Positions 2,357 to 7,431 of a stretch of 64,000 nt of DNA are shown here, one piece after another. The stretch is from Acidimicrobiia bacterium (GTDB lineage: Bacteria > Acidobacteriota > Terriglobia > Bryobacterales > Bryobacteraceae), in the NCBI GenBank assembly GCA_016871315.1, contig VFZE01000008.1:1-64000 (forward strand), given 5' to 3'. Position 1 is the first letter of the stretch. Each line of letters opens with the position of its first letter. The position numbers and the translations under genes are program-made. The notes below the pieces were generated by a model. That model did no database searches. It saw only the letters and a program-made list of their open reading frames with translations, and had not been told where the DNA came from.

Positions 2357-3214
2357 ATGCCTAGAAGATCAAGCCGTCCCTTCCGTGTTGCGTTTCAAGG
2401 CGAACTCGGCGCCTTTTCCCATATTGCCGCCAACCAGTTGCTTGGCGCTAATGTGGAGGTGCTGCCTTGCCAGCAGTTTGAGCAGGTTTTCCGCAGCGTG
2501 GTGGACAAAAAGGCCCCTGCCGCCATCATTCCCATCGAGAACACGCTGCATGGCTCTGTTCACGAAAACTATGACCATCTGCTGCACTTCAATCTGCCGA
2601 TTATCGGCGAGACCAGCGTGCGTATCGTGCACAATCTCATCACCCTTCCGGGAGTGCGTTCGCGCAACATCCGGCGCGTCTTCTCGCATCCGGTGGCGCT
2701 GAACCAGTGCCTGGACTTTTTCGCCGCTAATCCGCAGATGGAAAAGGTGCCTTACTATGACACGGCGGGAAGCGTGAAGATGTTGAAGGAGGATGAGCTG
2801 ACCTATTCAGCCGCCATTGCCAGCCAGCTTGCCGCCGATCTCTACGGCTGCCGCATTTTGAAACGGTCGATTGAAGACGATCACCGCAACTTTACGCGCT
2901 TCTTCCTGCTCGGCCGCCCAGGCAAGAAGGTGATGCTGAAGCTGCCCGTAAAGCGTGGATATAAGACTTCGCTTGTTTTCACTACGCGCAATGTTCCGGG
3001 AGCGCTGTTCCGGGCGCTGTCGGCATTTGCGTTGCGGGACGTGAGCCTGTCGAAGATCGAATCGCGCCCGCTGCGCGGCAAGCCGTGGGAGTATCTGTTC
3101 TATCTTGACCTGCTGGGGCGCGAAAACGATCCCAACGTGCGTAATGCTCTGACGCATTTGCGCGAACTGGCCGATTTTCATCGCGTGCTCGGTTCCTATC
3201 CGCGCAGCGCCTGA
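2357..3214 (+). CDS. pheA: Prephenate dehydratase
   Basis: This is a stand-alone prephenate dehydratase of 285 residues, converting prephenate to phenylpyruvate in phenylalanine synthesis. The catalytic domain starts with FQGELGAFSH and contains the expected IPIENTLHGSV. The TRF catalytic motif appears in DHRNFTRFFLLG near residue 180. A C-terminal ACT domain (about 200-275) carries ESRPLRGKPWEYLFYLDL, the phenylalanine-sensing signature. There is no fused chorismate mutase. It follows ubiX by 11 nt. Its last 19 nt overlap the converging dnaE2 gene. Confidence 0.95.
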   Translation: MPRRSSRPFRVAFQGELGAFSHIAANQLLGANVEVLPCQQFEQVFRSVVDKKAPAAIIPIENTLHGSVHENYDHLLHFNLPIIGETSVRIVHNLITLPGVRSRNIRRVFSHPVALNQCLDFFAANPQMEKVPYYDTAGSVKMLKEDELTYSAAIASQLAADLYGCRILKRSIEDDHRNFTRFFLLGRPGKKVMLKLPVKRGYKTSLVFTTRNVPGALFRALSAFALRDVSLSKIESRPLRGKPWEYLFYLDLLGRENDPNVRNALTHLRELADFHRVLGSYPRSA

Positions 3215-6195
3215 AGCTTGTGCGGCGCCATGACGCGCGTGGCGTTCAGCACCGCGCCCTTGCGGTTGTCGAACGGGTCCACCTCCGCGCGCACCGCCAC
3301 CACGGGCCGCGTCGTCAGATGGCCGAAGTTGCGGTACGCCTCGGCGAACAGCGCCACCTCGGCGAAGCCGGAATAATCGGCCAGCGTGAGAAATTTCATC
3401 GTCCCGCGGTCGGTGGGATGCTGGCGGTCGCAAACAATCAGCCCGCATACTTCCACCTGTTTGTCCATGTGGTCGGTGATGCGCGCCGCCGGAACGTAAC
3501 GGCTCCAGTCCACTCCGGCGGCGTAGTAATCCAGCGGATGGCAGCTTACCGGAAAGCCCAGCAGCTCATGCTCCCAGCGCTCCACCTGCATTTTGCCGGC
3601 GCCGAGTTCCGGCTCCACCGGCTCCACCAGTCCGCCTGATCCGGCCACCGCCTCCAGACGCGCCAGTCGCCAGAACAGCCTGCTCCGCGGCTCGCCGAGG
3701 GAATCGAGAGCCCCGGCCTTCAGCAGCGACAGCCACTCGGCCGGCTTCGGCTTGCCGCGCCGGAACAGATCGCCGGCATCGGAGAACGGCTGCTCTTCCA
3801 TCAACCGCTTCACCGTCTCCTCGCGCAGCCCCTTGATCTGCGATAGCGGCAGCCGCACCGTGTCACCGCTCACCAGGCAGCGCTCTTCCGACAGATTCAC
3901 GTCCGGCGGCAGAAACCGCGCGCCGTTGCGCAGCGCCTCCAGTACGTAGACGATGGTTGCGTAGAAGCCGCGCTGGTTGGAAATCACCGCCGCCAGGAAC
4001 TCCACCGGGTAGCGCGACTTCAGCCATGCTCCCTGGTAGGCCTCCACCGCATAGGCCGCCGAATGCGCTTTGTTGAACATGTATCCGGCGAAATCCTCAA
4101 CCATTCCCCACACCGCTTCGATCTCCTCCGCCGTGTGGCCGCGCCCGTGCGCGCACTCGCGGAACTCATCGCCGAAGCGCGCAATGCGCTCGCGGTCCTT
4201 GTTCTTCACCAGCGCCCGCCGCAGCATATCGGCGCGGCCCCAGTTCATGCCCGCGAATCCGTTGGCCACCAGGAGAATGTGTTCTTCATACGCCATCAGC
4301 CCGTAGGTGTCGGCCAGCAGCGGCTGCAGCGATGGATGCACGTAACTCACCGGTTCCAGCCCCTGATGCCGCCGTGCGAAGGCGCGCTTCTTGCCCTCGT
4401 TGGCCGCGCCGGGCCGGATGATGGATTCCACCGCCGTCAGGCAGTAAATGTCGCGGCAGTCCGACATTTGCAGCAGTCCGGTCATGGCCGGCGACTCAAT
4501 GTGAAAAACACCGCGCGCGCGCCCGGTGGCGATTTGCTCCCAGGTGTGTGGATCTTCCTCATCGATCCTCTCGACATCGATCGCGATGCCGCGGTTGGCC
4601 TGGATGTTCGCGGCGGCGTCGCGCAGCACGCTCAGGCCCGCCTGGCCCAATAGGTCCATCTTCAGCAGGCCCAGATCTTCCACATCGTCCATCGTGTACT
4701 GCGTGGTGGGAATTCCCTTCGCGCTCACGAACAGCGGCATGCGGTCCTCAATCGCCGTGGCGCTGATCACCAGCCCGCAGGGATGCATCATCCGGTGCCG
4801 CGGCGCCCCTTCCAGCTTCCACGCGGTTTCGAGCACCGTCTTGTACGGCTCCTGCTCGACCGGCAGATGCCGGCATTCCGGCGCCCGCTCCACCACCGCC
4901 GCCGCGTCGCCGTGAAAGTGCGGCAGGTGTTCGGTGAAGCGCCGCACCTCGCGCTCCGGAATCCCGTACACCTTCGCCAGATCCGCCACCGCCGCGCGGC
5001 CCTGAAAAGTGTTCAGCGCGCCGATCATCGCCACGCGCCCCTCGCCGTATTTTTCGAAAACATACTTCACAACGTCATCGCGCTTGTCCCAGGGCAGGTC
5101 GAGGTCAATATCGGCGAGCTTGGCGAATTGCATCCGCTCGCGGTTCAGAAAGCGCTCGAAGCTGAGTCCGAAGCGGAACGGGCAGACGTTGCTGATGCCC
5201 AGCGCGTAGCAGACCAGGCTGCCGGCGGCGCTGCCGCGCGCCAGCGTTGCGATGCCGTTTTCATTGGCCCAGCGCACGATGTCGGCGAAGATCAGGAAGT
5301 AGCCGGCGTAGCCCACCTGCTCGATCATCTCCAACTCCCGTTGCAGACGCTCGCGCTGCTCCGCTTTCGGACGCGCGCCGTAGCGTCTTCGCAATCCCTC
5401 CTCGCTCAGCCGCTGCAGCATCGCCGCGGCATCTTCCTCTCCGCAGGCGAACTCCGGGAAATGGATCTCCCCCAGCGGATAATCGAACCGGCAGCGCTCG
5501 GCGATGCGCAGCGTATTGGCCAGAGCCTGCTTCATCTCACCGAAGTGCCGCTCCATTTCTTCCGGCGTGTGGAAGTGATACTGCCCCTGGCGCGGCAGCT
5601 TTTCCTCATGCTCCTGGTCGAGCAGCGTCAGCGTCCGCATGGCGGCCACCATGTCGTAGAGCCGGCGGTCGGCCGGTGTCAGATAGTGCGTCTCCGCGGT
5701 GGCCGCTACCGGCGTCTTCATCCGCCGCCCGGCCTCCACAAACGACCGCGCCTTTTTCCAGTCCCCTTCATTGTGCGGAGAAATCTCGAGCACGAAGTTC
5801 GCGCCGTAGATCTCACGGTAGGGCGCCATTGCCGCCTGCGCCGCCGCATTACGCGGTCCGTAGAGGCACACCAATCCCTTACGGAGTTCGTTCAACCGCT
5901 CGTGCGTCACGCCTCTTGTGAGCAGCCGGCAGAGGTTGCTGTAGCCGGTTGCGTTTTCCACGAGCAGGCTGAGCCACTCGCCTTCCGGTGTCCGCACCAT
6001 GCTCCCGATTACCGGGTGCACGCCGGCCTCTTTTGCCTTGCGATAGAACTCCACCGCGCCGCTCAGGCCTTCGGTATCGATAAGCCCAACGGCCGGCATG
6101 CGGCAAGCGGCGGCCGCCTCGACGATCTGCGGAACGGGGAGCGTCGAGTCGAGCAGGGAGTGCCAGGAATGGTTATGCAGGGCCACGTAGGGCAT
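3196..6195 (-). CDS. dnaE2: Error-prone DNA polymerase DnaE2
   Basis: This C-family DNA polymerase of 999 residues is shorter than the replicative alpha subunit (about 1160) and close to DnaE2 length. An N-terminal PHP domain opens with ALHNHSWHSLLDS. The palm acidic residues are present in LADIDLDLPWDKRDD (about residue 360) and in LLKMDLLG (about 510), so it should be active. C-terminal HhH and OB-type segments follow. DnaE2 carries out damage-induced mutagenic synthesis together with ImuB. The ImuB-like gene ends 21 nt upstream, and a perfect hairpin/palindrome fills that gap and ends 1 nt before the ATG. Its 3' end overlaps the converging pheA by 19 nt. Confidence 0.93.
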   Translation of the reverse strand: MPYVALHNHSWHSLLDSTLPVPQIVEAAAACRMPAVGLIDTEGLSGAVEFYRKAKEAGVHPVIGSMVRTPEGEWLSLLVENATGYSNLCRLLTRGVTHERLNELRKGLVCLYGPRNAAAQAAMAPYREIYGANFVLEISPHNEGDWKKARSFVEAGRRMKTPVAATAETHYLTPADRRLYDMVAAMRTLTLLDQEHEEKLPRQGQYHFHTPEEMERHFGEMKQALANTLRIAERCRFDYPLGEIHFPEFACGEEDAAAMLQRLSEEGLRRRYGARPKAEQRERLQRELEMIEQVGYAGYFLIFADIVRWANENGIATLARGSAAGSLVCYALGISNVCPFRFGLSFERFLNRERMQFAKLADIDLDLPWDKRDDVVKYVFEKYGEGRVAMIGALNTFQGRAAVADLAKVYGIPEREVRRFTEHLPHFHGDAAAVVERAPECRHLPVEQEPYKTVLETAWKLEGAPRHRMMHPCGLVISATAIEDRMPLFVSAKGIPTTQYTMDDVEDLGLLKMDLLGQAGLSVLRDAAANIQANRGIAIDVERIDEEDPHTWEQIATGRARGVFHIESPAMTGLLQMSDCRDIYCLTAVESIIRPGAANEGKKRAFARRHQGLEPVSYVHPSLQPLLADTYGLMAYEEHILLVANGFAGMNWGRADMLRRALVKNKDRERIARFGDEFRECAHGRGHTAEEIEAVWGMVEDFAGYMFNKAHSAAYAVEAYQGAWLKSRYPVEFLAAVISNQRGFYATIVYVLEALRNGARFLPPDVNLSEERCLVSGDTVRLPLSQIKGLREETVKRLMEEQPFSDAGDLFRRGKPKPAEWLSLLKAGALDSLGEPRSRLFWRLARLEAVAGSGGLVEPVEPELGAGKMQVERWEHELLGFPVSCHPLDYYAAGVDWSRYVPAARITDHMDKQVEVCGLIVCDRQHPTDRGTMKFLTLADYSGFAEVALFAEAYRNFGHLTTRPVVAVRAEVDPFDNRKGAVLNATRVMAPHKLQALRG

Positions 6196-6196
6196 G

Positions 6197-6232
6197 GCAC
6201 CCTATAGTGTACATTTTTACACTATAGGGTGC
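6197..6232. promoter_or_regulatory. Perfect 15-bp inverted repeat before dnaE2 (candidate damage-response operator)
   Basis: The two 15-nt arms (6197-6211 and 6218-6232) are exact inverted copies around a 6-nt loop; the arm is GCACCCTATAGTGTA. The inner 8-6-8 geometry is repeated upstream of the ImuB-like gene at 7410-7431. It lies between the ImuB-like stop codon, which falls inside it, and the dnaE2 start. It does not resemble a rho-independent terminator because no T-run follows. The likely role is an SOS-type operator or promoter; which protein binds is unknown. Confidence 0.6.
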
Positions 6233-7401
6233 ATAAGAAACTCATAGCCCCGCACCACTACCTTTTCCCCGTACTGCCGCCGCAGAGCATCGATGGCCGC
6301 GGCCAGCGCCACGGGCGAGCGCGGCGCGGGTCCGGCGAACAGGTTCATCTGCGGCGACGGCGCATAGACGCGGCTGGCCGCCAGCCGCATCCCGCGCAGG
6401 CGCACGCGGCGCTGCCAGGCCGCGCGGAGCAGGCCGGGAAGCAGGGGGAAGAAATCATTCTCCACCGAGGTCGGCTCGGGTACGGTCACCGATCGCTCCG
6501 ATTCGGCGCGGTCGGTGTAGCGCAGCTCCAGCGTCAGCCGCCGCACTTCGCAGCCGGCCGCGCGGATTTGAGCCATCAGCCGCTCCAGCATCCGCCGCAG
6601 TTCCCGCAGCAGGAGCGGCTCCTCCCAGGCGTCTTCGGCGAAGTCGATCTGTTCGCGCCAGCGGGGCTCTCCCGCCCCGGAGGAGGGAGCGCGCACCGGG
6701 TCAAAGTCGATCCCCTGCGCCAGCCGCTGCAGTTTCAGTGCGCGGCGCCCCAGCACCAGCTCCAGCGCGTCCAGCGGCGCGCGCGCCATTTCTCCGATCC
6801 GCGCCATGCCCGCCACTTGCAGCAGCGCCAGTGTCTCGCCGCCGACACCCGGCAGCCATCCCAGGGGCAGGGAATGGAGGAACGCGGCCTCCTGCCCGGC
6901 GGGCACAACAACCTCGGCGCCGGGCTTCTTGATCCGCGCCGCGATCCGCGCCACCGATTTGCTCGACCCCATGCCGGTGGAAAGCGACACGCGCAGCCAC
7001 TGGCCCACCGTCCGGCGCAGCTGGTGCACGACCGCCGCCGCCTCGCCATGCAGCGAGCCGGTGCCGGTTAGATCAAGGTATGCCGCGCCGACGCTGACCG
7101 GTTCCACCAGCGGCGTCCGTTCCTGGCACAGGCCGAGGATCTGGCTGGAGAACTGCTCATAAAGCTCGAAATGGGCCGGCACGGTCACCAGCGCCGGGCA
7201 CAGCCGCCGTGCGCGCGTTACCGGCAGTCCGGCGCGTACGCCGAAGCGTGCCGCCTCGCGCGAGGCCGACAGCACGACGCCGCGGCCCCGTCCGCCGACG
7301 GCGACAGGACGGTTTCTGAGCTTGCGGTCGGAAGCCTGTTCAATGGAGGCGAAGAAGCCATCGCCGTCCCAATGGACGATGGAGCGGGCAGAGAGGGGCA
7401 T
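6217..7401 (-). CDS. imuB: Catalytically degenerate Y-family polymerase, ImuB-like
   Basis: The 394-residue protein is clearly Y-family: VHWDGDGFFASIEQ at the N-terminus, then GRGRGVVLSASREAARFGV and the HhH-type LPLGWLPGVGGETLALL. The normally invariant SIDEAYLD motif reads SVGAAYLD, so the catalytic Asp and Glu are Gly105 and Ala106. That loss is typical of ImuB, a non-catalytic hub of the ImuA-ImuB-DnaE2 mutasome. A clamp-binding-type motif QMNLF lies at 351-355 near the C-terminus. DnaE2 follows directly, as expected for this cassette, but no imuA or lexA is adjacent. A DinB paralogue that has lost activity is the alternative name. Confidence 0.82.
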   Translation of the reverse strand: MPLSARSIVHWDGDGFFASIEQASDRKLRNRPVAVGGRGRGVVLSASREAARFGVRAGLPVTRARRLCPALVTVPAHFELYEQFSSQILGLCQERTPLVEPVSVGAAYLDLTGTGSLHGEAAAVVHQLRRTVGQWLRVSLSTGMGSSKSVARIAARIKKPGAEVVVPAGQEAAFLHSLPLGWLPGVGGETLALLQVAGMARIGEMARAPLDALELVLGRRALKLQRLAQGIDFDPVRAPSSGAGEPRWREQIDFAEDAWEEPLLLRELRRMLERLMAQIRAAGCEVRRLTLELRYTDRAESERSVTVPEPTSVENDFFPLLPGLLRAAWQRRVRLRGMRLAASRVYAPSPQMNLFAGPAPRSPVALAAAIDALRRQYGEKVVVRGYEFLMHPIV

Positions 7402-7409
7402 GGCAGAGA

Positions 7410-7431
7410 ATAGTGTACATCCTTATACTAT
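7410..7431. promoter_or_regulatory. Second copy of the palindromic box, before the ImuB-like gene
   Basis: ATAGTGTA, 6 nt, TATACTAT is an 8-6-8 inverted repeat with one mismatch. It ends 8 nt before the ATG at 7401. Both arms and the loop (CATCCT versus CATTTT) match the inner part of the palindrome before dnaE2. On the minus strand it contains -10-like hexamers, so a bound repressor would block transcription start. The match between two functionally linked genes supports a shared regulator. Confidence 0.6.

What the first reader, a model, noticed from the sequence alone, without database searches (positions are those of the whole stretch)
6197..7431. Same palindromic box precedes both mutasome genes
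The box before the ImuB-like gene (8-6-8, ATAGTGTA ... TATACTAT) matches the core of a perfect 15-6-15 inverted repeat before dnaE2. Each ends 1-8 nt from the start codon and overlaps -10-like sequence. It does not look like the well-known GAAC/GTTC or CTGT-type LexA boxes, so it may be a lineage-specific damage-response operator. dnaE2 having its own box suggests independent as well as operonic induction.
Basis: partly seen in the sequence, partly recalled or inferred. Interest (0 to 1): 0.62.

Follow-up and report, generated by a model that had tools for sequence, protein, structure and literature searches.

The report
LexA2 operator before mutasome genes
The matching palindromes in front of two error-prone DNA-copying genes are almost certainly docking sites for a second LexA repressor found in part of one soil-bacterial family (Bryobacteraceae, Acidobacteriota), so these bacteria probably switch on mutagenic repair through their own slightly altered SOS-response switch.

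Summary
Window 6197-6232 is a perfect 15-6-15 inverted repeat one base before dnaE2. Window 7410-7431 is the same 22-bp box with one mismatch, 8 bases before an imuB-like gene. Shuffles of the window gave no such matches.

The genome has two lexA genes. lexA1 has a different, direct-repeat-like box. lexA2 carries a variant of the window's box at its own start codon. In the 6.2-Mb genome the box also precedes a DinB-superfamily gene.

In relatives the box sits at the start of lexA2 (40 of 45 loci), of imuB-like orthologs (28 of 28 examined) and, in individual genomes, of dnaE2, recA, imuA-imuB-dnaE2 and dinB. Among 37 family genomes the imuB-like gene occurs only in lexA2-positive ones (p about 3.5e-6). 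This is a LexA2/SOS operator.

One correction: the box is a close variant of the E. coli type. TAGTGTA-N6-TACACTA has the geometry of TACTGTA-N6-TACAGTA with one base changed per half; some relatives keep CTGT halves.

recA in this genome lacks the box. Binding and damage induction are inferred, not shown. I found no published Acidobacteriota LexA motif in the held library, but a key 2006 paper was not available.

The parts
6197..6232 (.). Perfect 15-6-15 inverted repeat before dnaE2; the 22-bp operator core ATAGTGTA-N6-TACACTAT is 6204-6225
7410..7431 (.). Operator before the imuB-like gene, ATAGTGTACATCCTTATACTAT, one mismatched pair
6217..7401 (-). imuB-like gene: inactive Y-family polymerase homolog, 394 aa. 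The catalytic D-E pair is replaced (SVGAAYLD); C-tail has a clamp-like QMNLF and a RecA-N-terminus-like stretch; its stop codon lies inside the dnaE2 box
3196..6195 (-). dnaE2: PolIII alpha homolog, 999 aa

Best explanation
The boxes are operators of LexA2, a second, cleavable LexA present in part of the Bryobacteraceae. In undamaged cells a LexA2 dimer sits on TA(G/C)TGTA-N6-TA(C/T)A(G/C)TA at the start of the imuB-like gene, dnaE2, a DinB-superfamily gene and lexA2 itself and blocks transcription. RecA filaments on damaged DNA trigger LexA2 self-cleavage, which releases the imuB-like/DnaE2 mutasome for error-prone bypass. The site at dnaE2 would allow dnaE2 to be controlled separately from, as well as with, the imuB-like gene. 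Shown here by sequence: the sites, their conservation, their link to lexA2, and the presence of the LexA cleavage and catalytic residues. Inferred: binding, repression, cleavage, induction, and promoter activity at the dnaE2 box.
For: Own genome: sites within 1 mismatch of TAGTGTA-N6-TAYACTA are only those at the imuB-like gene, dnaE2 and the DinB-superfamily gene. A looser pattern adds the lexA2 start and one site inside an unrelated coding frame. lexA2 starts carry the box next to the start codon, usually behind TTGACA: all 9 in the first set, one or two of them weakly, and 40 of 45 in named Acidobacteriota loci at 11 or more of 14 positions. All 28 imuB-like orthologs whose start was located carry it, 11-14 of 14. 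It precedes dnaE2 in two genomes where dnaE2 is on another contig, recA in two, canonical imuA-imuB-dnaE2 in one (two overlapping boxes), dinB in one and the DinB-superfamily gene in two. Co-occurrence: 7 of 7 imuB-like-positive genomes fall among the 9 lexA2-positive of 37 (p about 3.5e-6). Of 28 lexA2-negative genomes, 4 have a site within 1 mismatch; the two I examined are not at SOS genes. LexA2 keeps an Ala-Gly at the cleavage position, Ser and Lys, and aligns to E. coli LexA over its full length. It forms a clade separate from LexA1 (100/100). The four LexA2 proteins with Ser rather than Gly at the E. coli Glu45 position have CTGT in both half-sites.
Against: No binding, cleavage or expression data. 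The genome's own recA genes and lexA1 lack the box. The own lexA2 site is degenerate in one half (ATAGTATAAAAATTTACATAG). G013, which has lexA2, shows no good box at its imuA. Five lexA2 loci have weak or no boxes. No clear sigma-70 promoter is seen at the two window sites. Genomes are related, so site counts are not independent; the Ser45/CTGT link rests on four close relatives.
Confidence: 0.9

Rival explanations
1. The box is read by LexA1 (the family-wide LexA), and lexA2 is only another target.
For: LexA1 is present in nearly all genomes and is a LexA with DNA-binding and S24 domains.
Against: lexA1 promoters carry a different conserved element, roughly TTC-N8-TTCGCC, and not this box. 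The box is nearly absent from lexA1-only genomes. LexA2 has an E. coli-like recognition helix SPNG(V/I)AGHL, while LexA1 has SLATVHKHI.
Confidence: 0.04
2. The dnaE2 repeat acts as an RNA hairpin that hides the dnaE2 ribosome site or ends imuB-like transcripts, rather than as an operator.
For: The minus-strand RNA folds at -37.4 kcal/mol (z -6.3) with the dnaE2 ribosome-site region inside the stem. The outer six base pairs (GCACCC/GGGTGC) are not part of the operator consensus.
Against: The core is shared with the imuB-like box, whose RNA fold is ordinary (z -0.65), and with lexA2, recA and other genes. Dyads in relatives do not extend this far. No T-run follows. It could be an added function in this genome.
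Confidence: 0.04
3. Operator of a different stress regulator, unrelated to LexA, that happens to include lexA2 among its targets.
For: Binding has not been tested, so a third regulator is not formally excluded.
Against: The box is most regularly at lexA2 itself, goes with lexA2, shares the geometry of the E. coli LexA box, and its targets are the core SOS set.
Confidence: 0.02

Closest known systems
E. coli/gammaproteobacterial LexA box CTGT-N8-ACAG (TACTGTATATATATACAGTA)
   Same: 20-bp dyad with the same spacing; TGTA/TACA core; outer TA; several relatives keep one or both CTGT halves; LexA2 recognition helix begins SPN as in E. coli
   Different: First base of each half is mostly G (111 G against 50 C in 166 half-sites); the E. 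coli Glu44 and Glu45 positions are mostly Ala and Gly in LexA2
Two-lexA systems with separate operators (Geobacter sulfurreducens, reference title cited in PMC6511836; Pseudomonas putida lexA2 mutasome cassette, from memory)
   Same: A second autoregulated LexA with its own motif, tied to translesion polymerases; recA not always under it
   Different: lexA2 is unlinked to the mutasome genes here; different motif and phylum
ImuA-less Y-family/DnaE2 mutasomes, for example Streptomyces coelicolor DinB2-DnaE2 (PMC6511836)
   Same: Inactive Y-family protein with a RecA-N-terminus-like tail coupled to DnaE2, with no imuA found
   Different: Acidobacteriota lineage; dnaE2 has its own operator in this genome
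Alphaproteobacterial LexA direct repeat GTTC-N7-GTTC
   Same: Resembles the element at lexA1 in these genomes, not the window's box
   Different: Not a palindrome; a different LexA

Membership tests
LexA operator (SOS box) | Present at the promoter of a lexA gene (autoregulation) | tested here: met
   Own lexA2 has a variant box; 40 of 45 lexA2 loci have it
LexA operator (SOS box) | Present at recA | tested here: inconclusive
   At recA in G006 and G008; not at either recA of the window's genome
LexA operator (SOS box) | Present at translesion polymerase genes | tested here: met
   imuB-like 28 of 28 examined, dnaE2, canonical imuA operon, dinB
LexA operator (SOS box) | Cognate LexA with DNA-binding and S24 self-cleavage domains and catalytic residues | tested here: met
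   PF01726 and PF00717; Ala-Gly, Ser and Lys columns invariant
LexA operator (SOS box) | Bound by LexA and derepressed after damage | not testable with these tools
   Needs gel shift and RNA measurements
E. coli-type CTGT-N8-ACAG box | CTGT half-sites spaced by 8 | tested here: not met
   Window boxes are GTGT-N8-ACAC and GTGT-N8-ATAC: same spacing, first base changed
ImuB | Y-family fold without catalytic acidic residues | tested here: met
   PF00817 and PF11799; SVGAAYLD in place of SIDEAYLD
ImuB | C-terminal ImuB-C domain and an imuA partner | tested here: not met
   394 aa, about 42 residues after the last Pfam domain; no imuA-like hit in own genome with a RecA query that finds imuA in G008 and G013

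The most novel reading that the evidence does not exclude
Some Bryobacteraceae run two separate SOS circuits: LexA1, with a direct-repeat box, on lexA1 and in some genomes recA; and LexA2, with a GTGT-N8-ACAC box, reserved mainly for the mutagenic polymerases. Mutagenesis could then be switched on with its own threshold and timing. The LexA2 box also documents a transition between CTGT and GTGT operators tracked by recognition-helix residue 45.
Probability: 0.5. Interest if true: 0.62.

Novelty: new variant of a known kind. Interest (0 to 1): 0.5.

Why it matters
LexA operators change unusually often in evolution; PMC8565304 counts 17 reported motifs and links new ones to lexA duplications. 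This gives a motif and regulon for a second LexA in Acidobacteriota, one base per half-site from the E. coli operator, with a matching change in the recognition helix. That makes the motif-drift model directly testable. It also predicts which Acidobacteriota can induce mutagenesis apart from the rest of the SOS response.

Tried and rejected
RNA hairpin as the main role: kept only as a possible extra in this genome. The G000:C14 match: inside a coding frame, taken as chance. The G014 hits beyond lexA2, imuB-like, dnaE2 and dinB: this genome's control counts are as high, so they were not used. Distant LexA relatives in Planctomycetota: no box. Genome-wide control counts for loose patterns (2-3 mismatches) are as high as the real ones, so only strict matches and gene positions were used as evidence. 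Papers on the cassette's dispersal (PMC1326238), the Verrucomicrobia motif (PMC4951493) and Geobacter lexA (PMC152628) are not held, so prior description of this motif cannot be excluded.

Full report
What is there. The dnaE2 start (6195, minus strand) is preceded after one base by a perfect 15-6-15 inverted repeat, 6197-6232. The imuB-like gene (start 7401, minus strand) is preceded after 8 bases by the same 22-bp core with one mismatch, 7410-7431. Shuffled windows give no such matches. The stop codon of the imuB-like gene (6217-6219) lies inside the dnaE2 box, so the two genes are nearly contiguous.

The genes. The imuB-like protein has Y-family domains, but the catalytic Asp-Glu pair is replaced (SVGAAYLD). 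It ends with a clamp-like QMNLF and a stretch resembling the N terminus of RecA, features also seen across its orthologs. It lacks the long ImuB C-terminal region, and no imuA was detected in the genome by a RecA query that does find imuA in G008 and G013. This matches the ImuA-less, inactive Y-family plus DnaE2 systems described in PMC6511836.

The regulator. The genome holds two lexA genes. lexA1 (C12) belongs to a set present in nearly all relatives, whose promoters share an element close to TTC-N8-TTCGCC, resembling the alphaproteobacterial direct repeat. lexA2 (C75) has close orthologs in only 9 of the 37 family genomes first sampled. The two form separate, fully supported clades. lexA2 carries ATAGTATAAAAATTTACATAG directly before its ATG. 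In relatives the form is TTGACA, 10-14 bases, then a box such as AAGTGTAAATACTTATACTA ending at the start codon.

Regulon by footprinting. In the own genome, sites within one mismatch of TAGTGTA-N6-TAYACTA are those at the imuB-like gene, dnaE2 and a DinB-superfamily gene; a looser pattern adds lexA2 and one intragenic match. In relatives the box precedes lexA2 (40 of 45 loci), imuB-like orthologs (28 of 28 with a located start), dnaE2 where it stands apart from the imuB-like gene (G014, G026), recA (G006, G008), a canonical imuA-imuB-dnaE2 operon with two overlapping boxes (G008), dinB (G014) and the DinB-superfamily gene again (G001). Where dnaE2 directly follows the imuB-like gene in relatives (G001, G006, G016) it has no box of its own; the window's genome is an exception with both.

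Specificity. All seven genomes with an imuB-like ortholog among the 37 are lexA2-positive (p about 3.5e-6). Of 28 lexA2-negative genomes four have a site within one mismatch; the two looked at are not at SOS genes. In a wider search 37 of 237 family genomes have the imuB-like gene; their lexA2 status was not tested.

Relation to known boxes. From 83 sites the half-site is TA(G/C)TGTAAAT, with G 111 and C 50 at position 3. The E. coli half-site is TACTGTATAT. The geometry is the same; one base differs in the conserved part. Four Bryobacter-type LexA2 proteins with Ser at the position of E. coli Glu45 have CTGT in both halves; those with Gly mostly have GTGT in at least one. PMC3091678 lists Glu45 among E. 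coli LexA's DNA-contacting residues.

Limits. No binding or expression data exist here. Own recA genes lack the box; in G014 and G016 the recA upstream region contains GGCGAAC, which resembles the lexA1 element, a visual lead only. Related genomes are not independent samples. Literature search found no Acidobacteriota LexA motif, but key papers were not held.

Noticed in passing
window 6197-6232: The dnaE2 palindrome extends six base pairs beyond the operator (GCACCC/GGGTGC) and would form a very stable RNA hairpin over the dnaE2 ribosome-site region (z -6.3). This extension is not seen at the other boxes.
   Followed up: partly
L008, L009 (G000:C11:118594-120987): Two recA genes in near-tandem, neither with the LexA2 box; several relatives also have two recA genes.
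   Followed up: partly
L007 and L021-L039, upstream of lexA1: Conserved element near TTC-N8-TTCGCC at lexA1, like the alphaproteobacterial GTTC-N7-GTTC direct repeat; similar GGCGAAC stretches lie before recA in G014 and G016.
   Followed up: partly
L006 500-1480: A DUF72 gene is divergent from lexA2, with the lexA2 box in the roughly 20-bp gap, so one box may control both.
   Followed up: no
L003 1571-2095; L065: A DinB-superfamily (PF05163) gene under the LexA2 box in two genomes of the genus.
   Followed up: no
L226: A record titled Arcobacter (DYJN01000006.1) encodes a Bryobacteraceae-type LexA2 with the box, so it is probably mislabelled.
   Followed up: no
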